From a virus: 64,000 nt of DNA. The notes under the pieces are model-generated. The model did no database searches and was not told the origin of the DNA. It saw nothing but the letters and a program-made list of their open reading frames with translations. Shown piece by piece: positions 52,971 to 64,000 of this stretch (position 1 is the stretch's first letter; each line of letters starts with the position of its first letter). Position numbers and translations under genes: made by a program. The stretch is from IMG/VR virus record IMGVR_UViG_3300021425_000032, positions 1 to 64,000 of that record; one strand, written 5' to 3'.

Positions 52971-54110
52971 ATGGATACTCGTATACACGAGATTTTAGAT
53001 AAAGAAGTAGATAGACAGGCTACTACAGTCGAATTAATAGCAAGTGAAAACTTTGCTAGTGCCAGCGTTATGAAACTAAGTGGCAGTGTGTTTACAAACA
53101 AATACGCTGAGGGTTATCCAGGCAAGCGTTACTATAATGGTTGCGAGCATATGGACGAGATAGAAGCACTTGCTGTAGACGAACTATGTAAGTTGTTTAA
53201 GTGTAACTATGCCAATGTACAACCACACTGTGGTGCAAATGCTAACACAGCAGTGTACCAAGCATTCCTAAATCCAGGTGATAGTATACTAGGAATGGAT
53301 CTAGCAAGTGGAGGACACCTAAGCCACGGAAGCCCACCAAACATTTCAGGCAAGGTGTATAGTGCATGTAGTTACGGCGTAAAAGAAGACGGTTATTTAG
53401 ACTACGATAAAATAGAATGGATGACCAAAGAATATCGTCCTAAAATGATTATTGCAGGTGCAAGTGCATATCCTAGACAGATCAATTGGGAAGTATTTAG
53501 AAAGATAGCAGACAAGTATGGTGCATTACTGTTAGTTGACATGGCGCACTACAGCGGTCTTATAGCAGGCGGAGCATACCAGTCGCCACTAGCATATGCG
53601 GACGTAGTTACAAGTACAACACACAAGACCTTACGCGGTCCTAGAGGTGGTATTATACTATGGAACAACCCAGAGTACACACGTAAAATCAATAGTGCAA
53701 TTTTTCCTGGCACACAAGGCGGACCATTGATGAATCAAATTGCAGCCAAAGCACAATGTTTCATAGAAGCAAATACACCCGAGTTTAAAGACTATGCAAA
53801 GCAAGTTGTTAAAAATGCAAAAGCCATGTGTGTTGTGTTTAAGGACAAAGGATTTAAATGCTTGACAAATGGAACAGATTCGCATATAATATTATTAGAT
53901 TTAAGTAATAGCAAATATAGCGGAAGAGAGGCTGCTGACTTGTTGGAAGAAAACGGTATTACTGTAAACAAGAACGGTGTACCAAATGACCCAAGAAGTT
54001 TTGTAGAAACAAGTGGTATTAGAATTGGAACAGCAGCAGAAACAACTCGCGGTCATGATGAAAAATGGTTTAAGGAATTAGCGGAAAAAATATGCCAGAT
54101 ATTGACATAG
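52971..54110 (+). CDS. glyA: Serine hydroxymethyltransferase GlyA
   Basis: A 379-residue PLP enzyme converting serine and tetrahydrofolate to glycine and 5,10-methylene-THF, feeding thymidylate synthesis. Motifs: ELIASENFAS, TNKYAEGYPGKRYYNGCE, QPHCGANANTAVY, VDMAHYSGLIAGG and the PLP-Lys site TSTTHKTLRGPRGG are all intact. Bacterial GlyA is about 415, so roughly 35-40 C-terminal residues are missing, ending at KELAEKICQILT; the active-site part is complete. It overlaps the mini-DnaE gene by 19 bases. Confidence 0.95.
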   Translation: MDTRIHEILDKEVDRQATTVELIASENFASASVMKLSGSVFTNKYAEGYPGKRYYNGCEHMDEIEALAVDELCKLFKCNYANVQPHCGANANTAVYQAFLNPGDSILGMDLASGGHLSHGSPPNISGKVYSACSYGVKEDGYLDYDKIEWMTKEYRPKMIIAGASAYPRQINWEVFRKIADKYGALLLVDMAHYSGLIAGGAYQSPLAYADVVTSTTHKTLRGPRGGIILWNNPEYTRKINSAIFPGTQGGPLMNQIAAKAQCFIEANTPEFKDYAKQVVKNAKAMCVVFKDKGFKCLTNGTDSHIILLDLSNSKYSGREAADLLEENGITVNKNGVPNDPRSFVETSGIRIGTAAETTRGHDEKWFKELAEKICQILT

Positions 54111-54661
54111 ACTTTGCAGACAGAGATGTTATATTAAACAAGATACAACATCGTATTGCAAAGTTAGATACAGGTAAAAAACACAATACAGGAGTCTACG
54201 TAACAGAGGCTCCTCACAATCCTGTTGATAATATATGTACAATAGATCATAAAACCGCAGAAGATCGTGGTTACTTTAAACTAGATTTTTTAAATGTGTC
54301 TATATACAAAGACGTTAGAGACGAGGCACATTTACAAGAACTTATGGAAAGGAAACCAATATGGCAACTACTGGAGCACAAAGACTTCGTCGACAAAGTA
54401 TTTCATCTAGGCGGGCACGACACTCTCTTAAAGCAATTGAAGCCTACCTCGGTCGAGCAATTGGCCGCAACACTAGCAATAATACGTCCAGCAAAGAGAC
54501 ACTTAGCAGAAAAGAGCTGGAACGAAATATTCAACGAAGTTTGGGTAAAGCCGACAAACGGTGAATACTATTTTAAAAAAGCACATGCTGTAAGTTATGC
54601 AATGGCCGTTGTTGTGCATATGAATTTACTATGTGAGCAACTCGATGCTTCACAAGATTAA
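54092..54661 (+). CDS. Miniature DnaE-like (PolIII alpha, C-family) palm protein
   Basis: A 189-residue protein colinear with parts of bacterial DNA polymerase III alpha. MPDIDIDFADRDVIL matches the PDFDVDFxxxRDxVI palm motif (D5, D7 as D401, D403 of E. coli); KKHNTGVYVTEAP matches KHAGGVVIAP; FKLDFLN matches VKFDFLG (D65 as D555); VFHLGGHDTLLKQLKPTSVEQLAATLAIIRP matches the fingers segment; KKAHAVSYAM matches NKSHSAAYAL. So all three catalytic Asp remain in a sixth of the usual length, without PHP or tail domains. It starts inside glyA. Could be active, a regulator or a remnant. Confidence 0.8.
   Translation: MPDIDIDFADRDVILNKIQHRIAKLDTGKKHNTGVYVTEAPHNPVDNICTIDHKTAEDRGYFKLDFLNVSIYKDVRDEAHLQELMERKPIWQLLEHKDFVDKVFHLGGHDTLLKQLKPTSVEQLAATLAIIRPAKRHLAEKSWNEIFNEVWVKPTNGEYYFKKAHAVSYAMAVVVHMNLLCEQLDASQD
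54361..54564 (+). CDS. Nested basic ORF inside mini-DnaE gene (candidate)
   Basis: An out-of-frame ORF of 67 residues, very basic (QRLRRQSISSRRARH), starting at ATG 54361 with GGAAAGGA about 7 bases upstream. In this stretch the mini-DnaE frame switches to less common codons (TCG, GTC, GAG, AGC). Could be a small DNA-binding protein or chance. Confidence 0.3.
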   Translation: MATTGAQRLRRQSISSRRARHSLKAIEAYLGRAIGRNTSNNTSSKETLSRKELERNIQRSLGKADKR

Positions 54662-55133
54662 TGTTCCACGCACCATAGAGTGGAATAAAAAACCTAATAG
54701 AAAATATTTCCTTGAACATTTAATAAATGATAATGGATATATGTCAATGGCTGAAATAGGAGTGCGTGACGGCCGCACAACTTTTTACTTACTAGATAAA
54801 ATACCTTACTTAAAAATATATGCTGTAGATACAGACATACGTTTATTTTATAATGACGAAGTTAAAGTAAAGTACGGTGATAGATTAATACCTATTAACG
54901 GTGACAGTGCTGTTGTAGCAGAACGTGTACCAAAAGTTGATATAGTTTTTATTGATGCTGACCATTCTTATGATGCATGTAGAAAAGATATATTATTATA
55001 CAGCAAAAGAATAAACGGCGGCGGATGTCTTAGCGGACATGATATCGACTTTCCTGGAGTAAACAAAGCGGTAAATGAACTTGTTCGAACATATGAAGTT
55101 GGTCCAAACAATGTATGGTTTCAGTTTATTTGA
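54645..55133 (+). CDS. Class I SAM methyltransferase
   Basis: A 162-residue methyltransferase of the Methyltransf_24 type: MAEIGVRDGRTTFYLL (motif I), IYAVDTDIRL (II), VDIVFIDADHSYDACRKDI (IV, with acidic metal-type residues) and GGCLSGHDIDFPGV. It begins within the mini-DnaE end. ATG 54645 preferred. Substrate unknown; sixth methyltransferase domain in the window. Confidence 0.82.
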   Translation: MLHKINVPRTIEWNKKPNRKYFLEHLINDNGYMSMAEIGVRDGRTTFYLLDKIPYLKIYAVDTDIRLFYNDEVKVKYGDRLIPINGDSAVVAERVPKVDIVFIDADHSYDACRKDILLYSKRINGGGCLSGHDIDFPGVNKAVNELVRTYEVGPNNVWFQFI

Positions 55134-55494
55134 CTTTTCTTACTAGTTGAACGTTCTTACGTTTAACTCTCTTAACACTTAGATTACCTAAGTTTACACA
55201 AGGCCCTGATACTATACGAACATCTTTTGAGTTCATTGTAATAATTGCGTGTTTAAAAACTTCCATTTCTTGTTTTAAGAAAATATTGATAGGTATGAGT
55301 CTGTTTGATTCCCACCACCATGCTTCGCCTAATTCTAAAAAGTGTTTCTTAGCTTCTTCTGTTCGTAAGTTATTAAAGACGTACATACTGGTAACAGCCT
55401 GGTCTTGGTTAATAACAATTCCCACGTACTCGAGGCCGCCGTAGCTCACAATGCTTATGAACGGAAATTTTTCTTGTATGTCTTTTGTTAGCAT
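55126..55494 (-). CDS. Conserved phage protein, minus strand
   Basis: A 122-residue protein, with FPFISIVSYGGLEYVGIVIN, MYVFNNLRTEEAKKHFLELGEAWWWESNRLIPINIFLK, ISIVSGPCVNL-like core and basic C-terminus (VKRVKRKNVQLVRKVK). I recall similar conserved proteins in marine T4-like phages but no function. It ends in an 8-base overlap with the plus-strand methyltransferase. Confidence 0.65.
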   Translation of the reverse strand: MLTKDIQEKFPFISIVSYGGLEYVGIVINQDQAVTSMYVFNNLRTEEAKKHFLELGEAWWWESNRLIPINIFLKQEMEVFKHAIITMNSKDVRIVSGPCVNLGNLSVKRVKRKNVQLVRKVK

Positions 55495-55525: not shown

Positions 55526-56302
55526 ATGTCACTTATACCTAGATATTTAGTCAATAACAGAACCAGTCTCGTTACCAATGTGACAGGATTCGCAACGGAG
55601 TATAGACCAGTGTACCAAAGAAACATACCAATATATAGTGGAATCGATAATAAATTAGAATTCCAATTATTCAATCCAGACCAAAAGCCAATTAATCCAA
55701 CTGGCTCAACAATACATTTTGTAGCGTTTGATGAGATGAATAATCAAGTAATTAAACATACAGGAACAGTAACGATTGCTAACAAAGGTTTGTTTACAGT
55801 TACAATTACAGATCAAGACACTCTTAATTTAAAGCAACAGTATTTGTCTTATGCAATTTACTTAACAGACGACACAACTAATGCTGACACTATTACATAT
55901 GCAGACGAGCAACTAAATGCATCAGGTACAATCTATGTTAGTAAAGAAGCATTCCCTGGTCCACGTGCAACTTCTGAAGTAACAAACTTTACACAAGACA
56001 GTGGTGATGTTGATGTATACAACAGCGATGCTATATCAGCAGAGCCGGGTATAAATGGTAACGAAGCACTACACACTATTGCAATATACAGTGACAACTA
56101 TGTAGGCGATGTAAAAATACAAGTAACACTTGATAATCAAATTACAAATCAATCTAATTGGGCAACAATTACTACACTTACATTAGACGGTACTGAAACA
56201 GAACCTACAGTAAGTAGTTTTAATGGTGTTTACAACTACATTAGATTCACAACTACAGCAAATCCATCAGAGAAAATTTCTAAAATTTTAGTAAGAAACT
56301 GA
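55526..56302 (+). CDS. Virion structural protein, beta-rich
   Basis: A 258-residue protein rich in Thr, Asn and short strands: RNIPIYSGIDNKLEFQLFNPDQKPINPTGSTIHFVAFDEMNN (Ig-like), KHTGTVTIANKGLFTVTIT and a C-terminal INGNEALHTIAIYSDNY...YIRFTTTANPSEKI domain. Typical of baseplate or whisker proteins of marine phages. It has its own late promoter, isolated among replication genes. No clear family. Confidence 0.7.
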   Translation: MSLIPRYLVNNRTSLVTNVTGFATEYRPVYQRNIPIYSGIDNKLEFQLFNPDQKPINPTGSTIHFVAFDEMNNQVIKHTGTVTIANKGLFTVTITDQDTLNLKQQYLSYAIYLTDDTTNADTITYADEQLNASGTIYVSKEAFPGPRATSEVTNFTQDSGDVDVYNSDAISAEPGINGNEALHTIAIYSDNYVGDVKIQVTLDNQITNQSNWATITTLTLDGTETEPTVSSFNGVYNYIRFTTTANPSEKISKILVRN

Positions 56303-56338: not shown

Positions 56339-57343
56339 ATGAGTGTAGTCATCGAAACAGTTCTGACATATCTGCCCGCTAAGAGAAAAACAACTCCTAG
56401 CGGTTGGACTTCATTCAATGCACCTTGCTGTATTCATAACGGTGAAACCCGTGATCAGAAACAGCGTGGAGGTGTAATTCAAGAAGGTAATGGCATAAGT
56501 TATCATTGTTTTAACTGTGGCTTTAAGGCTTCTTGGCAACCAGGTAGACCCTTCTCCCATAAGATGCGTAAACTCCTACAATGGTTAGGAAGTCCTGATG
56601 ACGTAGTCAATAAGGTCGCACTTGACGTTATGCGTGAGAATGAAGGTGTCGAAGTAAAGCAAAGGCTTGCTGAACTTCCTACATTTAACACAGTGCCTTT
56701 ACCCGAGACAACACGTAAGTTGCAGGAGTGGGCAGACTACTGTGCAATGGAGCCCGGTGGTGTAGACAAGCATCTTATGAAAGTGTTTGAATACATGAAA
56801 CAACGTAACCTGTTTTTAGATGATACAGATTACTATTGGACACCCGAACTAGGATACCGCGACAGGTTGATCATACCGTTCTTCTATGAAGGTAGAATTG
56901 TAGGATGGACTGGTCGTAGTGTACTTCCGGACAAGAAGCCTAAATACTTGACGGAAGTACAACCTGGGTTTGTTTATGGATTAGATGAACAACGATACAA
57001 CAAAGTATTTTGTATTGTTGTAGAAGGTCAGATAGATGCTATACACATAGAAGGTTGTGCGTTGGGTGGCAGTGAGATAAGCGATCAACAAGCAATGCTG
57101 TTGGGCAAACTACAAAAAGATATTATTGTAGTGCCAGACAGAGACAAAGCAGGTAGCAAGTTAGTAGAACGTTCTATAGAATTAGGGTATAGTGTTAGCA
57201 TGCCCGATTGGAAACAAAGCATCACCGATGTAAGCGATGCTGTAAATGAATATGGTAGACTGTATGCACTACATAGTATAGCGGCTAGTGCAGAAGAGTC
57301 ACCTTTAAAAATAAGATTGAGAGCAAAGAAATGGTTCAATTAA
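56339..57343 (+). CDS. gp61: DNA primase gp61
   Basis: A 334-residue T4-type primase that makes RNA primers for lagging strands. The zinc domain reads APCCIHNGETRDQ...YHCFNCGFKASW (CxH ... CxxC). The TOPRIM part shows CIVVEGQIDAIH and VVPDRDKAG (acidic metal ligands), after a GRIVGWTGRS basic segment. T4 gp61 is 342 residues. It is expressed with the membrane peptide and gp41 from an early promoter. Confidence 0.95.
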   Translation: MSVVIETVLTYLPAKRKTTPSGWTSFNAPCCIHNGETRDQKQRGGVIQEGNGISYHCFNCGFKASWQPGRPFSHKMRKLLQWLGSPDDVVNKVALDVMRENEGVEVKQRLAELPTFNTVPLPETTRKLQEWADYCAMEPGGVDKHLMKVFEYMKQRNLFLDDTDYYWTPELGYRDRLIIPFFYEGRIVGWTGRSVLPDKKPKYLTEVQPGFVYGLDEQRYNKVFCIVVEGQIDAIHIEGCALGGSEISDQQAMLLGKLQKDIIVVPDRDKAGSKLVERSIELGYSVSMPDWKQSITDVSDAVNEYGRLYALHSIAASAEESPLKIRLRAKKWFN

Positions 57344-57498
57344 GAATAGGTGCATTACTGTTGTTTTGCGGATTATTTGCATACTCCTTAATGGTACTAT
57401 ACCAACATGAGTCACAGCCAAAAGACGTATACATTATACATGAGCCGAGCATAATTACAGTAGAAGAACTATCACCAATGAGGGCAGAGAACGAATGA
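57331..57498 (+). CDS. Small membrane protein between primase and helicase
   Basis: A 55-residue protein: MVQLRIGALLLFCGLFAYSLMVLY is one membrane segment with a basic start, followed by an acidic tail. It overlaps the primase 3' end by 13 bases and the helicase start by 4 (ATGA). Most likely a membrane-anchored replisome or unrelated early function. Confidence 0.7.
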   Translation: MVQLRIGALLLFCGLFAYSLMVLYQHESQPKDVYIIHEPSIITVEELSPMRAENE

Positions 57499-58925
57499 GT
57501 ACACGACAGAATACAGACTATGGATTTGATATACAAAAAGTATATCTAGAAATGATGATGACAGACGCTGAAACGTTTGTAAGGTGTCAGGCTGTGTTCA
57601 ACCCAGAAGCATTTGACAGACGTTTACAAGAGCCTGCAAAGTTTCTTAACAACTATGTTACAGAACACAATGCTATGCCTACGTTTGATATGATAAATGC
57701 CGCATGCCCAGATGTAAAATTAAAGCACCCTGGCGAACTAATGGAGAATCATTATGATTGGCTACTATTAGAATTCGAAACGTTCTCTAGACACAAAGCA
57801 CTTGAAGCGGCAATTCTTAAGGGGGCTGACTTATTAGAACAAGGTGAGTATGGACCCGTTGAAGATTTAGTAAAGAAGGCAGTACAAATTGGATTGCAAA
57901 AAGACTTGGGTACAGATTATTTTGCTGACCCTAGAACAAGACTAGAAGGTATTAAAGATAAAAACGGACAGATAAGCACAGGGTGGGCTAACTTAGATAA
58001 GAAATTATTTGGTGGGTTCAACAGAGGAGAGCTGAATATCTTTGCAGGTGGCTCAGGGTCTGGTAAGAGTTTGTTCTTGGCCAACTTGGGTGTTAACTTT
58101 GCACTAACAGGGTTGAACGTTGTATACTTAACGTTCGAACTTTCAGAAGCACTTGTTAGTATGCGTGTTGATAGTATGACTACAGACATTCCAAGCAGAG
58201 ACATTTTTAAAAGCATTGATGATGTTGAAATGAAAGTCAAGATGATTGGTAAGAAGTCAGGTGCATTCCAAGTCAAGTATATGCCCACAGGTAAGAACGC
58301 AAATGACATACGTTCGTATTTGAAAGAGTATGAGATTAAAACAGGCAAGAAGGTAGACGTATTGCTAGTAGACTATTTGGACTTGATGCATCCTATAGCG
58401 GCTAAGATTAGTGCAGAAAACTTGTTTGTAAAAGACAAGTATGTATCGGAAGAGCTACGTAACTTGGCTATGGAACTTAATACTATCTTTGTTACAGCAT
58501 CACAGTTAAACAGAAGTTCAGTAGAAGAAATTGAATTTGATCACTCGCACATATCGGGTGGTATATCTAAGATCAATACAGCAGATAACTTGATTGGTAT
58601 CTTTACAAGTAGAGCTATGCGTGAGCGTGGACGTTATCAGATACAGTTGATGAAGACACGTTCAAGTTCAGGTGTAGGACAAAAGATTGATCTAGAGTTT
58701 GATGTAGACAGTTTGCGTATTAGAGATCTAGACGAAGACGATGATAACACAAACAACTTTGGTACAAACAAGTCAACTATCTATGATAATTTGAAGCGTA
58801 GCTCTACTAGTCCTGATGTAAACGAAAATGCAGATCCTGGAGAAGGTGATACTGTAGGTAAAATACGTGCAGAAGCAGATTCAACAAAACTAAAACAATT
58901 TCTCAATAATCTAAGTGATGACTAA
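57495..58925 (+). CDS. gp41: Replicative helicase gp41
   Basis: A 476-residue DnaB-type hexameric helicase. Walker A GGSGSGKS (185-192), Walker B VDVLLVDYLDLMHP, the arginine finger region IQLMKTRSSSG and HISGG loop all fit. T4 gp41 is 475. It unwinds ahead of the fork and recruits gp61 (encoded just upstream). The C-terminus has an acidic disordered tail. Confidence 0.96.
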   Translation: MSTRQNTDYGFDIQKVYLEMMMTDAETFVRCQAVFNPEAFDRRLQEPAKFLNNYVTEHNAMPTFDMINAACPDVKLKHPGELMENHYDWLLLEFETFSRHKALEAAILKGADLLEQGEYGPVEDLVKKAVQIGLQKDLGTDYFADPRTRLEGIKDKNGQISTGWANLDKKLFGGFNRGELNIFAGGSGSGKSLFLANLGVNFALTGLNVVYLTFELSEALVSMRVDSMTTDIPSRDIFKSIDDVEMKVKMIGKKSGAFQVKYMPTGKNANDIRSYLKEYEIKTGKKVDVLLVDYLDLMHPIAAKISAENLFVKDKYVSEELRNLAMELNTIFVTASQLNRSSVEEIEFDHSHISGGISKINTADNLIGIFTSRAMRERGRYQIQLMKTRSSSGVGQKIDLEFDVDSLRIRDLDEDDDNTNNFGTNKSTIYDNLKRSSTSPDVNENADPGEGDTVGKIRAEADSTKLKQFLNNLSDD

Positions 58926-59720: not shown

Positions 59721-59901
59721 ACTAGAACGACAGCGAGTTCGCAAACAACGACTAGAACGTATAGCACGTGATCCTAGTCTTGATCCTCAAGTTGCTAGAA
59801 TATGGCAACGTCTAGCTGACGAAGTGACCTTTGATGAAGCAGAATACAATCGAAGATGTGTGCAAATATTTCAGGGAAAGACTAGGGACAGGTTTTTCTA
59901 G
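59707..59901 (+). CDS. Small basic hypothetical protein (64 aa)
   Basis: A 64-residue, very basic, helical protein (LERQRVRKQRLERIARDPSL). Last of the plus-strand string, converging with the minus-strand gene (20-base overlap). No function known. Confidence 0.6.
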   Translation: MGPFELERQRVRKQRLERIARDPSLDPQVARIWQRLADEVTFDEAEYNRRCVQIFQGKTRDRFF

Positions 59902-60469
59902 CACTGCGTATAACTTCATAGTTGTTGGCCACAACAATTCCCATTACACCCGTTGCCTGTGCTAGTTCTTGATCACTAACAGTATTGATGTCTGAGTGTA
60001 GAGCATACAAAGGCAACAGTTTCAACAACAGCATTTGTTCTATACTGGGTTTTGCGGGCAACAGAGGATTTTGTTCTTCTACACACTCGAAACGAGTGGT
60101 GGCATAGATAGTGCTGTAAACATCAAGAGCCTGTAGTAGATAGTATATGGTGATGTGACCCTTTGATGCAGGTTCTTTAAATTCAAATTCCGGCAGTATG
60201 GGCTTGCCAGTGTTGTACCAATCAACACCTATGTAGAGTTCATCACTCAATGGCGTACGATCCTGCTGTATTGTGTAGAGGGGATCAAGCGTGTTGAATG
60301 TGTGTCTTACATCTGGTGGAGGTATATATATGTCATCTTCCGGTTGAGGTGCTGGTTCAAACATCTGTTGAGGTTGTAGTTTGATGCCTGCTATGTAGAG
60401 TTCATTAGTTGATGAGTGTGCCACTGAGCTTAACAGTGTTAAGAATAGAATGATAGTCCCTCGTGCCAC
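59882..60469 (-). CDS. Secreted or membrane-anchored protein (DUF5658-like C-terminus)
   Basis: 195 residues from GTG 60469: MARGTIILFLTLLSSVAHSS is a clean signal peptide. A disordered Pro-rich middle (APQPEDDIYIPPPDVR) is followed by a hydrophobic segment ITIYYLLQALDVYSTIYAT and IEQMLLLKLLPLYALHS, then GVMGIVVANNYEV; the order of these fits the DUF5658 membrane family. I chose GTG because a minus-strand CTAAATA promoter ends five bases before it; a longer frame runs through GC-rich repeats. Likely periplasmic or inner membrane. Confidence 0.7.
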   Translation of the reverse strand: MARGTIILFLTLLSSVAHSSTNELYIAGIKLQPQQMFEPAPQPEDDIYIPPPDVRHTFNTLDPLYTIQQDRTPLSDELYIGVDWYNTGKPILPEFEFKEPASKGHITIYYLLQALDVYSTIYATTRFECVEEQNPLLPAKPSIEQMLLLKLLPLYALHSDINTVSDQELAQATGVMGIVVANNYEVIRSARKTCP

Positions 60470-60474
60470 ACTAA

Positions 60475-60482
60475 TATTTAGC
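60475..60482 (-). promoter_or_regulatory. Late promoter GCTAAATA, minus strand, leaderless geometry
   Basis: GCTAAATA on the minus strand, five bases before the GTG start at 60469, the same spacing as for gp14, gp17 and 22710. Confidence 0.7.
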
Positions 60483-60779
60483 AACGAAGCCCGCAAGGCC
60501 GCCGGCCAAAGCCGCGAAGCGGTTAACGCAAAAAGCGCGAAGCGCAAGCGATAGCGCAGCGGTTAAGCAGATTTTAGTATCAACATACACATGAACCTAT
60601 AACGAACGTGTTTTGAACTAACCATAGCGACAGACGTCTATCAACGTGTTGCTTTCAGTCTAAAACAAAGGTTTGTAAAAAGATGACGTTTTAAAACTAT
60701 ATGTAGAGCGTGTATAACGTGTTTGTCACGCATACTAGCTCAAACGTAGCTATTAGTTCGTATTCACGCTGTATGACGC
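60483..60779. other. Noncoding region with GC-rich repeats and AACGTGTT octamers
   Basis: No convincing gene. Positions 60483-60566 are much more GC-rich than the rest, with recurring GCGAAGC and AGCGGTTAA units. Then AT-rich sequence holds AACGTGTT three times in the same direction (60605-60612, 60643-60650, 60716-60723). These might be iterons of an origin or protein-binding sites. Confidence 0.5.
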
Positions 60780-60983
60780 TTATATGCACTCTAAGACGCC
60801 ACTTCCTGTGTATGCTAGTGTAGCGTATGTACGTTCCTGTGCTGAGTCAAACACTAGTGTACACGAGTCTGACTGTTCTGTGTATATACCACGTAGTAAT
60901 AAGTCTGTAGCAAATGAAAATGTATTGATGTCTGCTATGTAATCTGTAACTGAGTCATCATATAGTATGTTGAGTAAATACAT
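60780..60983 (-). CDS. Small hypothetical protein (67 aa)
   Basis: A 67-residue acidic protein from ATG 60983 (a GTG at 60998 is also in frame). No ribosome-binding site or motif stands out. It lies between a noncoding region and the plus-strand small gene at 61013, divergent from it. Confidence 0.45.
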   Translation of the reverse strand: MYLLNILYDDSVTDYIADINTFSFATDLLLRGIYTEQSDSCTLVFDSAQERTYATLAYTGSGVLECI

Positions 60984-61012
60984 ATAATTACTTAGCACAA
61001 AGGAACACTACT

Positions 61013-61180
61013 ATGTACACACTAGAACAACTGCATGCTTATCAACAGTGGATACAACATCAACAGGGTCATCCTACTGAGCCACAACACTTCCTTACCA
61101 TTCTTATGAGAGACTTTGCTCTTACACACGGACAAGCACAAGCAGTGTACGATAGTCTAAGAGACTGGGAACTAAAGTAA
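61013..61180 (+). CDS. Small hypothetical protein (55 aa)
   Basis: A 55-residue Gln/His-rich helical protein with AAGGA 8 bases before ATG 61013. No family. Because of the good ribosome-binding site and normal codon use it is likely real. Confidence 0.6.
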   Translation: MYTLEQLHAYQQWIQHQQGHPTEPQHFLTILMRDFALTHGQAQAVYDSLRDWELK

Positions 61181-61290
61181 TACTACTACCCAAGAGCTAA
61201 AGCTCTACACACTCGCTAGTCGCTTGTGTGTGCTTGCTTACGCTAGTAGTTGCCCGAAATGGGTTCTACAACCAAAAAAATTGGTCGCGC
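61181..61290 (+). ncRNA. Candidate multi-stem structured RNA
   Basis: Several inverted repeats fall in a nested order: ACTACT and AGTAGT at the ends (about 61182 and 61244), enclosing AGAGCT-AA-AGCTCT (61193-61206) and ACACAC...GTGTGT (about 61207-61231), then CCC-GAAAT-GGG and CCAA...TTGG. That gives a three-way-junction-like shape with more hairpins behind. No coding frame was seen. Direction is arbitrary. Confidence 0.4.
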
Positions 61291-61519
61291 AAAAAATTGT
61301 GGTGAAGTACTTACAGAAGTGAGGTGGTGATTGCTACTGCACCGTTTTTTAAAAGTGTCCATTAACGCTAAGTGCTTGTTTTTGTTAGATATTTTTTATA
61401 AGCCCCGACCCCCCTCGAGAAATAAAATTCAAAAAAAATCTCCCCGGAGGAAGATTTTTCTTTCTGTGTGTCCCCACAGTAGGTGCGGTCTTGCATACAG
61501 TGCCGCGTACTGTTGCAGA
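61291..61519. other. Noncoding region
   Basis: No convincing gene in either strand. It includes the terminator at 61431-61461. An open plus-strand frame at 61331-61528 runs through the terminator and is basic and low in complexity; I judge it spurious. Confidence 0.5.
61431..61461 (-). terminator. Terminator for the minus-strand early operon
   Basis: An 8-bp AT stem (AAAAATCT with AGATTTTT) with a GC-rich inner part, and on the minus strand an eight-base T-run, lies 60-90 bases after the last minus-strand gene. It may act in both directions. Confidence 0.7.
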
Positions 61520-61870
61520 CTAGTCTAGTCGACTGCCTGCATAAGCTGTAAAGCCGTAGCCTTCTAGCACTCTAGCATAGGCTCTAGCACCAGCTTCTTT
61601 AATGCTAATGCTCTGCCCACCGTACCAGTTGCACCATTGGCTAAACACTCTGTTCCAGTTCTGGTCTATGCCAGCCTGCTTAAGAGCCTTGCCCATTTTG
61701 GTATTGCCCTTGAGCTTCTTACCATCATGTGCGTAGATGTCTACCCACGCAAAGCCACACGCATCCCAGTCCGAGTTACCGTTCTGTTGATATGCTTGCT
61801 CGCTTGCATTTACAGCCGCTTGCTGTGCTTTGTTTAGGATTACAGTTAGATCGTTTACAGTGTAGTTCAT
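61520..61870 (-). CDS. Conserved hypothetical protein (116 aa)
   Basis: A 116-residue protein with WDACGFAWVDIYAHDGKKLKGNTKMGKALKQAG and WNRVFSQWCNWYGGQSISIKEAGARAYA, a striking run of Trp, Gly and Lys that looks conserved. It resembles small phage proteins I have seen in several marine phages, function unknown. It has its own sigma-70-type promoter (61906-61933) and a GAGGGCA leader motif. Confidence 0.7.
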   Translation of the reverse strand: MNYTVNDLTVILNKAQQAAVNASEQAYQQNGNSDWDACGFAWVDIYAHDGKKLKGNTKMGKALKQAGIDQNWNRVFSQWCNWYGGQSISIKEAGARAYARVLEGYGFTAYAGSRLD

Positions 61871-61895
61871 ATTGTTTGCCCTCGCTATGTTTAAC

Positions 61896-62219
61896 TTACT
61901 CTACTAGTATAGCACCTTCGTGTGCATTGTCAACCCCTAATTCGCTGATTGACTCTATCTTTTTGTCTACAGTGTATGCACTATCAGTGTCTAGATATGC
62001 ATCGTGTGCCAGTGCTTCTGCTTGTGCTTCTGAAGTTGCTGTGACTGTGACCACATGATGTTCTGTGATTGTTACCTGAACTTCATACTCTTGTCCTGGA
62101 ATAGTGCCGTCTCCACCACATGCCCAACAGTCTTCTTCTAAGCCGTCTTGTTCATAGTACGTGTCGAGGTCGTAGCCTTCACCACAACACTCAACACACT
62201 CAACCTTTGGTGTAGCCAT
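61896..62219 (-). CDS. DnaJ-type zinc-finger protein with DpnD/PcfM-like domain
   Basis: A 107-residue protein. The N-terminal part has CVECCGEGYDLD and CWACGGDGTIPG, two CxxCxGxG zinc motifs as in the DnaJ cysteine-rich domain. The rest (EYEVQVTITEHHVVTVTATSEAQAEALA) resembles the DpnD/PcfM family by pattern. It overlaps the next minus gene by one base. Its promoter region for the next gene lies inside its 3' end. Confidence 0.68.
   Translation of the reverse strand: MATPKVECVECCGEGYDLDTYYEQDGLEEDCWACGGDGTIPGQEYEVQVTITEHHVVTVTATSEAQAEALAHDAYLDTDSAYTVDKKIESISELGVDNAHEGAILVE
61906..61933 (-). promoter_or_regulatory. Sigma-70-type promoter, minus strand
   Basis: TTGACA, 16-base spacer, TATACT on the minus strand, lying within the end of the DnaJ-like gene and serving 61520-61870. 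Confidence 0.75.
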
Positions 62220-62611
62220 TAAGCCATCACCGATGTTGTTGAAAAAGTCTGTGCATCAACTATGTCATAGCTGATTGGCTCACAAGGTTCAAAGCCAAAG
62301 CCTGCTACCTCGAACCAGTCTTGGAAGCCTTCACCGTCGTCTACGATCATCACATCGCCAACGCTTGTGCTTCTTAGGCCATAAGCCTTGCCGTTGTGTT
62401 GGATAAGGGGAGCAATGACTTCTACATCATCGTTCGCATCAGCACCGATCTTCATGCTCCAGCTACCATCAACATTGTTGGTGTATCTGTAGGCATACTC
62501 AGTGGCTTCAAAAAGATCCATGCCTGAGGTTGTTACCTTTGCAACAGCCTTAGGAGTTTCGCCCTCTTCTAAGAAACTTGCATGGATTACGGTTATAGTA
62601 AAGTTTTTCAT
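62219..62611 (-). CDS. Conserved hypothetical protein (130 aa)
   Basis: A 130-residue acidic beta-rich protein. AYGLRSTSVGDVMIVDDGEGFQDWFEVAGFGFEPC stands out as a likely conserved patch. Starts with a strong sigma-70-type promoter upstream and a GTGAGGGC leader element; the DnaJ-like gene follows immediately (stop/start overlap). No family known. Confidence 0.7.
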   Translation of the reverse strand: MKNFTITVIHASFLEEGETPKAVAKVTTSGMDLFEATEYAYRYTNNVDGSWSMKIGADANDDVEVIAPLIQHNGKAYGLRSTSVGDVMIVDDGEGFQDWFEVAGFGFEPCEPISYDIVDAQTFSTTSVMA

Positions 62612-62645
62612 ATTGTGCCCTCACACTTTAATTTAATATACTGCT

Positions 62646-62674
62646 AGTATAGCCTCAAACTCTCTCGTTGTCAA
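62646..62674 (-). promoter_or_regulatory. Sigma-70-type promoter, minus strand
   Basis: TTGACA, 17-base spacer, TATACT, 35 bases ahead of ATG 62611 on the minus strand. The -35 is preceded by GGGG, as in the promoter at 61906-61933. Confidence 0.85.
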
Positions 62675-62682
62675 CCCCTAAT

Positions 62683-62716
62683 TTTAAAAAAGAAAAACCC
62701 CGCACGAGGCGAGGTT
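62683..62716 (-). terminator. Rho-independent terminator, minus strand
   Basis: On the minus strand AACCTCGC and GCGGGGTT pair (one mismatch) around CTCGT, followed by TTTCTTTTTT. It ends transcripts from the ATPase gene. Confidence 0.8.
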
Positions 62717-62880
62717 CTTCCCGGTGACATGCAGAGCGTGAGGGCTACGCTTGATCTGCTCCACCTAGGCTCGTGGATGAGGGCGGTCCACTTGCCTTAA
62801 CGACCACTTGGGGAGGGCACCCGTTAGTGGTCATGTGCTGTGAGAGGAGCATTAGGATGCTCTACTCATCACAGTATTCT
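62717..62880 (-). ncRNA. Highly structured segment between ATPase gene and terminator
   Basis: A GC-rich stretch with several stems: AGCGT...ACGCT near 62735-62751, GACCACT...AGTGGTC near 62801-62833 with an inner GGGCACCC, and AGCAT...ATGCT near 62848-62863. It may be a 3' structured RNA or mRNA stability element. It overlaps a short candidate ORF. Confidence 0.45.
62745..62852 (-). CDS. Candidate micro-ORF (35 aa) after the ATPase
   Basis: ATG at 62852 overlaps the ATPase stop (TAATG), and the frame codes for 35 residues, Pro/Ser/Gly-rich, before TAG. No ribosome-binding site other than coupling. It may be only part of a structured untranslated region. Confidence 0.25.
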   Translation of the reverse strand: MLLSQHMTTNGCPPQVVVKASGPPSSTSLGGADQA

Positions 62881-63862
62881 CTGCCATTGCTTCCCACTTG
62901 GTAGGAAATGCTTTGGCCAAGTCGGCTATCTTAAGTACTGAACGCAAGCTCAGCTCCCTCAGCTTAGACTTGTTGATATCGATGTAGTCGATGATGTCTT
63001 GTACAGTTTCTTCTGGCAAGCCATACTCGTCTAGCATTCCGTCAGTAACGATCTGCTTGATACGCAGCATCTTCTCACGGTCTGTGTCAATAGTCAAGTC
63101 AATGTAGTGACATCTACTTTCTAGTGCTTCTAGGTGATCACGCATCTTCTTGCTCTTAACGTTTTCAAACTTGATGTTGGTGATAAAGATTGCACCACCT
63201 TTGAACTCGAATGAATCCGGCACACCTTCGTTTCTCAACTTGAATGAATCAGTGTTCCAATGGATACGTCTAGTCTTCTTAGAGTCTAGCGCAGCTTTTA
63301 GGATGTTCAGTGATAGTTCATCTGAGAACACTGAGTCACAGTCATCGAACACCAGTACATTGTCTTTGTCTGCGTAGTTGAACAGTTTACAGTAGAGTCC
63401 AATAGCACTCATAGCACCTTTGACCACCTGATACTTCGCAGGACGATCTCCTAAGGTTGCAATTAATTCATGTGCGCCTAGTACTTTTTCGACACCATGT
63501 GACTTACCTACACCCGGAGGACCTGAAACAATCATTGCACGTACATCACCTCGCTTGCAGGCTTTGGTCATGTCTTCGAGCATGTCGAATCGTTCGCGCA
63601 ATCTTTCGATTGTCTCTTCGTCGGTCTCCTCACGGGTGGTGGTGGCCACGGAGCTATCAACCAGCTCGTAGCTTGACGGGCTATCACACTTGATCTTAAT
63701 ATTTCGATCAGGGAAGCCTGCTACCGCAGTACCATCGACTGTGACGTAGCCACCACCGGCGCCAACCTTAAATTCAGATACCATAGGAAATACCATTCCT
63801 GTCATATCAACGTCTTTGCCTCTAATTTTGTAGAAGCCCTCTTTCATCTTTACTTTTTGCAT
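62852..63862 (-). CDS. AAA-type ATPase
   Basis: A 336-residue protein from ATG 63862. Residues 110-250 form an AAA core: MIVSGPPGVGKSHGVEKVL (Walker A), VLVFDDCDSVF (Walker B), GGAIFITNIKFEN (sensor 1), ESRCHYIDL (arginine finger region). The N-terminal 80 residues are beta-rich. Such stand-alone ATPases occur in diverse phages near early or replication genes. It may remodel DNA or protein complexes (inference). It is driven by the promoter at 63899-63927. Confidence 0.83.
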   Translation of the reverse strand: MQKVKMKEGFYKIRGKDVDMTGMVFPMVSEFKVGAGGGYVTVDGTAVAGFPDRNIKIKCDSPSSYELVDSSVATTTREETDEETIERLRERFDMLEDMTKACKRGDVRAMIVSGPPGVGKSHGVEKVLGAHELIATLGDRPAKYQVVKGAMSAIGLYCKLFNYADKDNVLVFDDCDSVFSDELSLNILKAALDSKKTRRIHWNTDSFKLRNEGVPDSFEFKGGAIFITNIKFENVKSKKMRDHLEALESRCHYIDLTIDTDREKMLRIKQIVTDGMLDEYGLPEETVQDIIDYIDINKSKLRELSLRSVLKIADLAKAFPTKWEAMAENTVMSRAS

Positions 63863-63898
63863 AGTTTTGCCCTCTCGCAATGTTTAATTTATATACAC

Positions 63899-63927
63899 AG
63901 TATATGATATATCTGTGCGCCTGTCAA
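63899..63927 (-). promoter_or_regulatory. Sigma-70-type promoter, minus strand (ATPase)
   Basis: TTGACA, 17-base spacer, TATACT on the minus strand. The stop codon of the gene upstream lies within the -35 box. Confidence 0.85.
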
Positions 63928-64000
63928 CCAAAAATCTTACCAAATAACCAAAAAAATCCTATGAAGCCTCCAAGTGCTATTGCGCCATACATGAAACTGT
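63924..64000 (-). CDS. Partial membrane protein, minus strand
   Basis: The C-terminal 25 or so codons of a minus-strand gene whose start lies beyond the window. It reads MYGAIALGGFIGFFWLFGKI, a membrane segment, then stop. Its TGA overlaps the ATPase promoter. Confidence 0.45.
   Translation of the reverse strand, partial: SFMYGAIALGGFIGFFWLFGKIFG

What the first reader, a model, noticed from the sequence alone, without database searches (positions are those of the whole stretch)
54092..54661. A 189-residue DnaE-like palm protein with all three catalytic aspartates
The protein lines up in order with five separated motifs of bacterial PolIII alpha (PDxDxDF, the KHxxGV segment, KxDFL, the QLxP..LA.. 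IRP fingers segment, and KxHxxxYA) while missing the PHP domain, most of the fingers and all C-terminal domains. D5, D7 and D65 correspond to E. coli D401, D403 and D555. It is in an operon with serine hydroxymethyltransferase. A C-family polymerase this small would be new; it might instead regulate or inhibit host PolIII.
Basis: partly seen in the sequence, partly recalled or inferred. Interest (0 to 1): 0.82.

Follow-up and report, generated by a model that had tools for sequence, protein, structure and literature searches.

The report
Half of a split mini DNA polymerase
In a family of giant bacterial viruses, the heart of a bacterial-type DNA polymerase appears to have been shrunk and cut into two separate genes, and this window carries one of the two halves beside the virus's primase and helicase genes.

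Summary
The 189-aa ORF is real and DnaE-like, but it is not a whole polymerase. It is phrog_11778, matched in 63 phage records (RaK2/121Q/GAP32/CBB, PA5oct, Atu_ph07, Phosso, XacN1, SCTP-2) and 550 IMG/VR stretches. It starts at DnaE's PDxDxD motif and lacks the upstream palm part with the GS motif. That part is a second, unlinked phage gene (phrog_11127, about 170 aa) ending where this one begins: E. coli DnaE 278-393 versus 400-784, Taq 295-455 versus 461-841. Both models are confident (pLDDT 88.1 and 90.5). The two co-occur in 59 of 60 listed named records and 11 of 14 contigs of at least 190 kb. No phage ORF examined fuses them, and little room is left for an intein. Asp and GS residues are invariant; dN/dS is about 0.1. 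Primase and DnaB helicase follow in nearly all relatives; SHMT is incidental. All 20 records checked with both halves carry a family-B polymerase. Best reading: a two-subunit, split-palm, miniature C-family nucleotidyltransferase at the phage fork. Assembly and activity are inferred. The window's own 65.6-kb record lacks the partner.

The parts
54092..54661 (+). Asp half of a split mini-DnaE (phrog_11778): palm from PDxDxD onward plus part of the fingers
54095..54115 (+). PDIDIDF motif; D3 and D5 = E. coli D401 and D403
54179..54196 (+). KHNTGV motif (E. coli K510-H511 region)
54278..54292 (+). KLDFL motif; D65 = E. coli D555
54482..54496 (+). IRPAK fingers motif
54575..54601 (+). KKAHAVSYA motif (E. 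coli NKSHSAAYA)
55126..55494 (-). convergent 122-aa ORF, phrog_11637, unknown function, conserved neighbour
   Evidence: 135 of 136 loci with enough flank, window included
55526..56302 (+). virion-structural-type protein, conserved neighbour
   Evidence: 120 of 122 loci
56339..57343 (+). DNA primase
   Evidence: 105 of 105 loci
57495..58925 (+). DnaB-like replicative helicase
   Evidence: 79 of 80 loci

Best explanation
The ORF encodes the Asp-bearing half of a naturally split, miniaturised C-family (DnaE) polymerase core of jumbo myophages. The other half, carrying the GS motif, is a separate unlinked gene (phrog_11127) next to GroES and clamp-loader genes. The two proteins most likely bind each other to rebuild one palm active site, with metal-binding Asp from this half and the triphosphate-binding GS loop from the other. 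The dimer would act as a small accessory nucleotidyltransferase or polymerase at the phage fork, for example extending or maturing primers for the family-B replicase, as its position beside primase and helicase suggests. Shown: homology, complementary coverage of DnaE, a sharp and conserved break point, co-occurrence, purifying selection, synteny. Inferred: heterodimer, catalysis, role at the fork.
For: Complementary coverage of one polymerase: in VIA-align the GS-half model matches E. coli 278-393, Taq 295-455, PolC 825-965, and this half matches 400-784, 461-841, 971-1296. On Pfam PF07733 the GS halves lie within positions 16-101 in 21 of 26 records, and this half at 96-196 in one contig, below the cut-off. 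The profile of the GS half matches E. coli DnaE up to residue 393 (E 1.6e-4). Break: GS proteins end 1 residue after EFx in 88 of 116 ORFs, plus 5 ending DYLK; this family starts 1-2 residues before DxDxD in 152 of 171, and 102 of 161 have under 10 in-frame codons upstream (duplicate loci included). Only one ORF among all held loci is hit by both profiles, and it is a long, cut-off DnaE (916 aa held) of a bacterial MAG, L306, which serves as a positive control; no phage ORF is. Co-occurrence: 59 of 60 listed named records; 11 of 14 contigs of at least 190 kb. D3, D5, D7, H31, K63, D65, H165, Y169 in 102 of 102; GRGS in 70 of 70. dN 0.045-0.178 with dS from 0.39 to saturated in 35 comparisons. 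Primase 105/105 and helicase 79/80 downstream; GS half with GroES 73/73 and clamp loader 45/48. Family B polymerase in all 20 records with both halves. Distances of the two halves correlate (r=0.70, 0 of 10,000 permutations, n=18).
Against: No binding or activity data; no complex could be modelled here. The fingers element ADxxRRAxxKK of DnaE is found in 0 of 102. E. coli R390 is Glu/Asp in 70 of 70 GS halves, so nucleotide binding must differ. No thumb, clamp-binding or OB part. Co-occurrence and correlated distances can come from common descent alone. Three contigs of at least 190 kb hold only one half (G035, G003, G025), possibly because they are fragments. The window's own record has no GS half. 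Pattern-based scans favour sequences that keep the motifs; the 9 diverse rows (the window and 8 named phages found by whole-protein search) also keep them. VIA Z of 8-9 for this half is called middling by the tool, and Foldseek E-values are weak.
Confidence: 0.62

Rival explanations
1. A catalytically idle replisome scaffold: the two DnaE pieces are kept as structural or regulatory subunits for primase, helicase or clamp loader.
For: Loss of the fingers RRAxxKK element and R390-to-acid change; tight linkage with primase/helicase and clamp loader; a separate family B polymerase exists.
Against: All catalytic Asp plus K63 and the GS motif are invariant, which a scaffold would not need.
Confidence: 0.2
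2. A mimic that inhibits or redirects host DNA polymerase III by occupying tau, clamp or template sites.
For: Phages often shut off host replication (general knowledge); the fold resembles host alpha.
Against: Catalytic residues are invariant; a complementary half is kept; the gene sits in a conserved replication cluster; the clamp- and tau-binding regions of PolIII alpha, which lie C-terminal of residue 784 (recalled), are not included.
Confidence: 0.1
3. The halves join into one chain (split intein or RNA trans-splicing) to give an ordinary small DnaE.
For: The break point is sharp.
Against: The ORFs end or begin within a few residues of the break in most cases, leaving little room for intein parts; even joined, thumb, full fingers and C-terminal domains are missing.
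Confidence: 0.03
4. Decaying remnants of a lost DnaE gene.
For: Small size and loss of domains.
Against: dN/dS about 0.04-0.17 in pairs with defined dS, invariant active-site residues, 550 IMG/VR stretches encoding relatives, fixed synteny.
Confidence: 0.03

Closest known systems
PHROGs phrog_11778 'DNA polymerase' (RaK2 ORF124, GAP32_282, CBB_287)
   Same: Same family, full length, same synteny.
   Different: Named only by similarity; CBB_287 and the GenBank version of the GAP32 gene are called membrane proteins. Phosso's record names both halves 'DnaE-like DNA polymerase III alpha', but no record or paper seen here says that the two are complementary halves.
PHROGs phrog_11127 (CBB_328, called truncated DNA polymerase III alpha in PMC5259590)
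   Same: The complementary GS-motif part of the same palm, in the same phages.
   Different: Different gene, 15-324 kb away on 20 records; other part of DnaE.
Bacterial PolIII alpha (E. coli DnaE, Taq PolIII alpha, PolC)
   Same: Catalytic Asp, KH, KxD, IRP and HxxxYA motifs in order; model aligns over 170-188 residues.
   Different: Split in two chains; no PHP, no full fingers, no thumb, clamp-binding, OB or tau-binding parts; R390 is acidic.
Compact PHP-less phage DnaE (548 aa in L018; DnaE-like proteins of Streptomyces phages)
   Same: Small C-family polymerase of phages; in some relatives of the window it starts about 6-9 kb downstream of this gene.
   Different: One chain with GS, all Asp and an RRAFAKK fingers element.
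Cyanobacterial split-intein DnaE (recalled)
   Same: DnaE from two genes.
   Different: Joined by protein splicing into a full enzyme; break elsewhere; little room for an intein here.
Split family B polymerase (Atu_ph07 gp276/gp277, PMC6102473 passages)
   Same: Polymerase encoded by two ORFs in a phage of this group.
   Different: Other polymerase family, adjacent ORFs.

Membership tests
C-family DNA polymerase (PolIII alpha) | PDxDxD and KxD catalytic aspartates | tested here: met
   same in 102 of 102 rows; numbering from 2hnh
C-family DNA polymerase (PolIII alpha) | GS motif of the palm in the same chain | tested here: not met
   ORF starts at PDxDxD; the GS motif is in a separate gene in relatives; partner not in own record
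C-family DNA polymerase (PolIII alpha) | Palm/fingers fold | tested here: met
   VIA-align Z 9.3, rmsd 3.6, 185 aligned to 3e0d; first 16 rows polymerases of this family, three of them so assigned by residue range. Foldseek E only 1e-3 to 0.5
C-family DNA polymerase (PolIII alpha) | PHP domain | tested here: not met
   189 aa, aligned from E. coli residue 400 on; no PHP match in Pfam
C-family DNA polymerase (PolIII alpha) | Fingers ADxxRRAxxKK element | tested here: not met
   0 of 102 rows
C-family DNA polymerase (PolIII alpha) | Clamp-binding, OB and tau-binding C-terminal parts | tested here: not met
   the protein ends at the equivalent of E. coli 784; that these parts lie beyond is recalled
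C-family DNA polymerase (PolIII alpha) | Template-directed DNA synthesis | not testable with these tools
   needs purified proteins
phrog_11778 | Profile match over full length | tested here: met
   7e-60, residues 3-183 on profile 8-194 of 197
Two-gene split palm (this report) | Both halves in the same genome | tested here: inconclusive
   met in 59 of 60 listed named records and 11 of 14 contigs of at least 190 kb; not seen in the window's own 65.6-kb record

The most novel reading that the evidence does not exclude
A natural two-subunit polymerase or nucleotidyltransferase whose single palm active site is assembled in trans from two unlinked genes, with metal-binding Asp on one protein and the triphosphate loop on the other. 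It would be the smallest active C-family core I know of (recalled, not searched), working with phage primase as a primer-extension step before a family-B replicase takes over.
Probability: 0.35. Interest if true: 0.85.

Novelty: new variant of a known kind. Interest (0 to 1): 0.64.

Why it matters
C-family polymerases are large one-chain enzymes or intein-joined ones (recalled). A lineage that keeps only the palm core, cut through the active site and dispersed in the genome, would define the minimum that this fold needs for catalysis and give a natural split-polymerase tool. It would also explain why giant phages with a family B replicase keep a bacterial-type polymerase core beside primase and helicase. 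The pairing makes the question directly testable with two small proteins.

Tried and rejected
Stand-alone mini polymerase: rejected because the GS part of the palm is missing and is found as its own gene in relatives. SHMT link: rejected; directly upstream in the window, L013 and L014 only, downstream in L201 (144 loci). Split intein: little or no room at either end. Fused form: of all ORFs in the held loci only L306, a long cut-off DnaE of a bacterial MAG, is hit by both profiles; the 9 loci from bacterial and archaeal genome contigs carry this half as stop-to-stop frames of 187-210 aa and are probably binned phage contigs. GS half in the window's own record: not found, and that record is a fragment. 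Compact 548-aa DnaE as partner: it has its own Asp and GS motifs and was seen in 7 of 143 IMG/VR loci (L018, L041, L046, L053, L092; L188, L206); 100 of the 143 hold under 8 kb downstream, so its true frequency is not known. PF07733 found no full-length DnaE in 26 large records; besides the GS halves it gave weak matches below the cut-off, some to stretches broken by stops, which I took as chance.

Results against pairing. G035, G003, G009, G001 and G012 have this half without a GS half, and G025 and G028-G031 have the GS half alone. In one search, 2 of 20 records with this half had a GS half, 3 more matched only the compact DnaE and 15 nothing. In one search (6 of the 9 MAG loci given), 4 of 6 had a short GS half, one matched only a full-length DnaE and one nothing. 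PP728206, a 109-kb record, lists this half only.

Weak tests. Foldseek alone gives best E 1e-3 for this half and 4.5e-3 for the GS half, so the fold claim rests on VIA-align, profiles and motifs. A sequence profile of this half against PDB is not significant (best E 0.023). Residues 1-75 of the GS half had no structural match and were not searched apart. GS-half neighbour counts include the 5 named loci that supplied the queries.

Literature, what I saw. PMC5259590 (CBB): passages; CBB_328 called truncated alpha; CBB_287 is not named there as DnaE. PMC6102473 (Atu_ph07): passages; gp316 alpha, gp671 epsilon. PMC7824862 (224 jumbo phages): passages; DnaE with PHP in subgroup 3.2. PMC3622015 (RaK2): passages; PolB. 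PMC12926913 (bacterial polymerases): passages; fragments under 200 residues discarded. Other papers: search listings only. Searches listed no paper that I saw to describe a split DnaE in jumbo phages; only open-licence PMC papers are covered and most listed papers were not opened.

Full report
What is there. ORF 54092-54661 (+, 189 aa) exists as described. It belongs to phrog_11778 'DNA polymerase' (7e-60) and resembles the long phage DnaE family phrog_405 (5e-10). The window is part of a 65,561-base virus record. It carries tail sheath, tail tube, terminase, DNA helicase, primase and DnaB helicase genes, so I take it as a fragment of a myophage related to the RaK2/PA5oct/Atu_ph07 jumbo phages.

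Residues. Reading E. coli numbering from the 2hnh alignment, PDFDVDF is 400-406 and KFD is 553-555. These, with H31, G34, K63, R132, P133, H165 and Y169, are the same in 102 of 102 dereplicated sequences and in the 9 diverse rows. Some relatives were found with patterns containing such motifs, so part of that invariance is by selection; eight of the nine rows are named phages found by whole-protein tblastn. dN is 0.045-0.178 against dS of 0.39 upward in 35 comparisons, two of them with undefined dS and a few between near-duplicate loci.

The missing half. The ORF starts at the catalytic Asp strand, so the GS-motif segment that precedes it in DnaE is absent. A paper on phage CBB mentions a truncated PolIII alpha, CBB_328 (passages). 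Translated, CBB_328 and Atu_ph07 gp316 end in the GRGS...EFL segment and belong to phrog_11127. A profile of seven such proteins matches E. coli DnaE 218-393 with E 1.6e-4. In PF07733 the GS halves match within positions 16-101 in the 21 of 26 records over the cut-off, while this half matches 96-196 in one contig, below the cut-off. So two separate genes cover adjoining parts of one palm.

Structure. Predicted models are confident: this half pLDDT 88.1, pTM 0.72; GS half from L179, a relative of the GS halves in contigs that carry window-like genes, pLDDT 90.5, pTM 0.67. VIA-align puts this half on Taq 461-841 (3e0d, Z 9.3, rmsd 3.6, 185 aligned), E. coli 400-784 (2hnh, Z 8.8) and PolC 971-1296 (3f2c, Z 9.2); the 16 best rows are polymerases of this family, three of them assigned by residue range only, and the next row is Z 3.4. 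The GS half, residues 76-171, lies on 5lew 307-413 (Z 12.7), E. coli 278-393 (2hnh, Z 10.5) and Taq 295-455 (4iqj, Z 10.4); all 15 rows listed are of the same kind. The gap between the halves is about six residues in each enzyme. Foldseek alone ranks C-family first for both but with weak E-values; among predicted viral structures its named leading matches for this half are phage DNA polymerases and DnaE proteins. Z of 8-9 is called middling by the tool, so the weight comes from full-length coverage, clean ranking and motif agreement together.

Break point and pairing. GS proteins end one residue after EFx in 88 of 116 ORFs, and five more end in DYLK; this family begins one or two residues before DxDxD in 152 of 171, and 102 of 161 have fewer than ten in-frame codons between the preceding stop and the motif (duplicates of the same locus included, start codon chosen as the nearest ATG). 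The 155 ORFs of this family are 175-249 aa. Over all held loci one ORF is hit by both profiles: L306, a long cut-off DnaE of a bacterial MAG, a useful positive control. Of 60 listed named records with this half, 59 also list the GS half; the exception PP728206 is a 109-kb record. Three further records were not listed and not checked. Of 21 large IMG/VR records, chosen because they held one half, 16 hold this half, 16 hold the GS half and 11 hold both; of the 14 records of at least 190 kb, 11 hold both, two only this half and one only the GS half. In one search, on 20 records with this half, many short, two had a GS half. Four of six MAGs tested also hold a short GS half. The genes lie 15-324 kb apart on the 20 records compared. 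Distance matrices of the two halves agree (r=0.70, 0 of 10,000 permutations, n=18), as expected for joint descent.

Neighbourhood. Downstream of this half lie a convergent phrog_11637 ORF (135 of 136), a structural-type protein (120 of 122), primase (105 of 105) and DnaB helicase (79 of 80), counted in the window and IMG/VR loci with enough flank. Primase and helicase follow in the same order in 8 of 9 named phage loci; XacN1 is the exception. SHMT is directly upstream in the window and its two closest relatives only. The GS half is followed by a small ORF (80 of 80), GroES (73 of 73) and a clamp-loader protein (45 of 48). PF00136 family B polymerase is present in 21 of 25 records, including the 9 named phages and the 11 contigs with both halves. 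No full-length DnaE was found in the 26 records. RaK2 is reported to lack gp45 and gp62 homologues (PMC3622015, passages).

How it may work. Conserved Asp and GS elements on two proteins that adjoin in the parent fold point to a heterodimer rebuilding one nucleotidyltransferase site. Against ordinary DNA synthesis, the fingers ADxxRRAxxKK element is absent in 102 of 102, and the position of E. coli R390 is Glu or Asp in 70 of 70 GS halves. So substrate handling must differ from DnaE, and a short-patch or primer-related reaction, or even a non-polymerase transfer, is more likely than processive replication. Since a family B polymerase is present, an accessory role next to primase and helicase is the best guess. 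A scaffold without catalysis is the main rival.

Known versus new. Each half is already a PHROG family and is sometimes called DnaE-like or DNA polymerase. In the searches made (12, 62, 63, 64, 66, 97-99; open-licence papers only, mostly listings) I saw no statement that the two are complementary halves of one palm. Compact one-chain DnaE proteins are known in other phages. I therefore rate this a new variant of a known kind: a split, miniature C-family core.

Noticed in passing
L018:18551-20194 (+), also L041, L046, L053, L092, L188, L206: A compact one-chain PHP-less DnaE of about 548 aa starts some 6-9 kb downstream of the mini-DnaE in some relatives; the window shows other genes at the matching place.
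   Followed up: partly
window 59880-64000: G+C rises to 0.43-0.46, genes turn to the minus strand and a phrog_1250 AAA protein appears (62852-63880); this differs from L053, so it may be another module or an assembly junction.
   Followed up: no
window 55126-55494 (-): A convergent 122-aa ORF (phrog_11637, unknown function) accompanies the mini-DnaE in 135 of 136 loci, closely enough to suggest a related role.
   Followed up: partly
L011:6878-9847 (-) and record NC_071039.1: Family B polymerase is split into two ORFs in Atu_ph07 and apparently in PA5oct, so these phages split more than one polymerase.
   Followed up: no
L093-L097, L103-L182: The GS half is followed by a small ORF, GroES and a clamp-loader gene in almost all loci with enough flank.
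   Followed up: partly
L293-L301: Mini-DnaE genes occur in contigs binned into bacterial and archaeal MAGs (one of 335 kb), probably misbinned jumbo phage sequence.
   Followed up: partly
window 52971-54110: Serine hydroxymethyltransferase gene carried by this phage and by its close relatives L013 and L014; a further copy lies downstream of the mini-DnaE in L201.
   Followed up: partly
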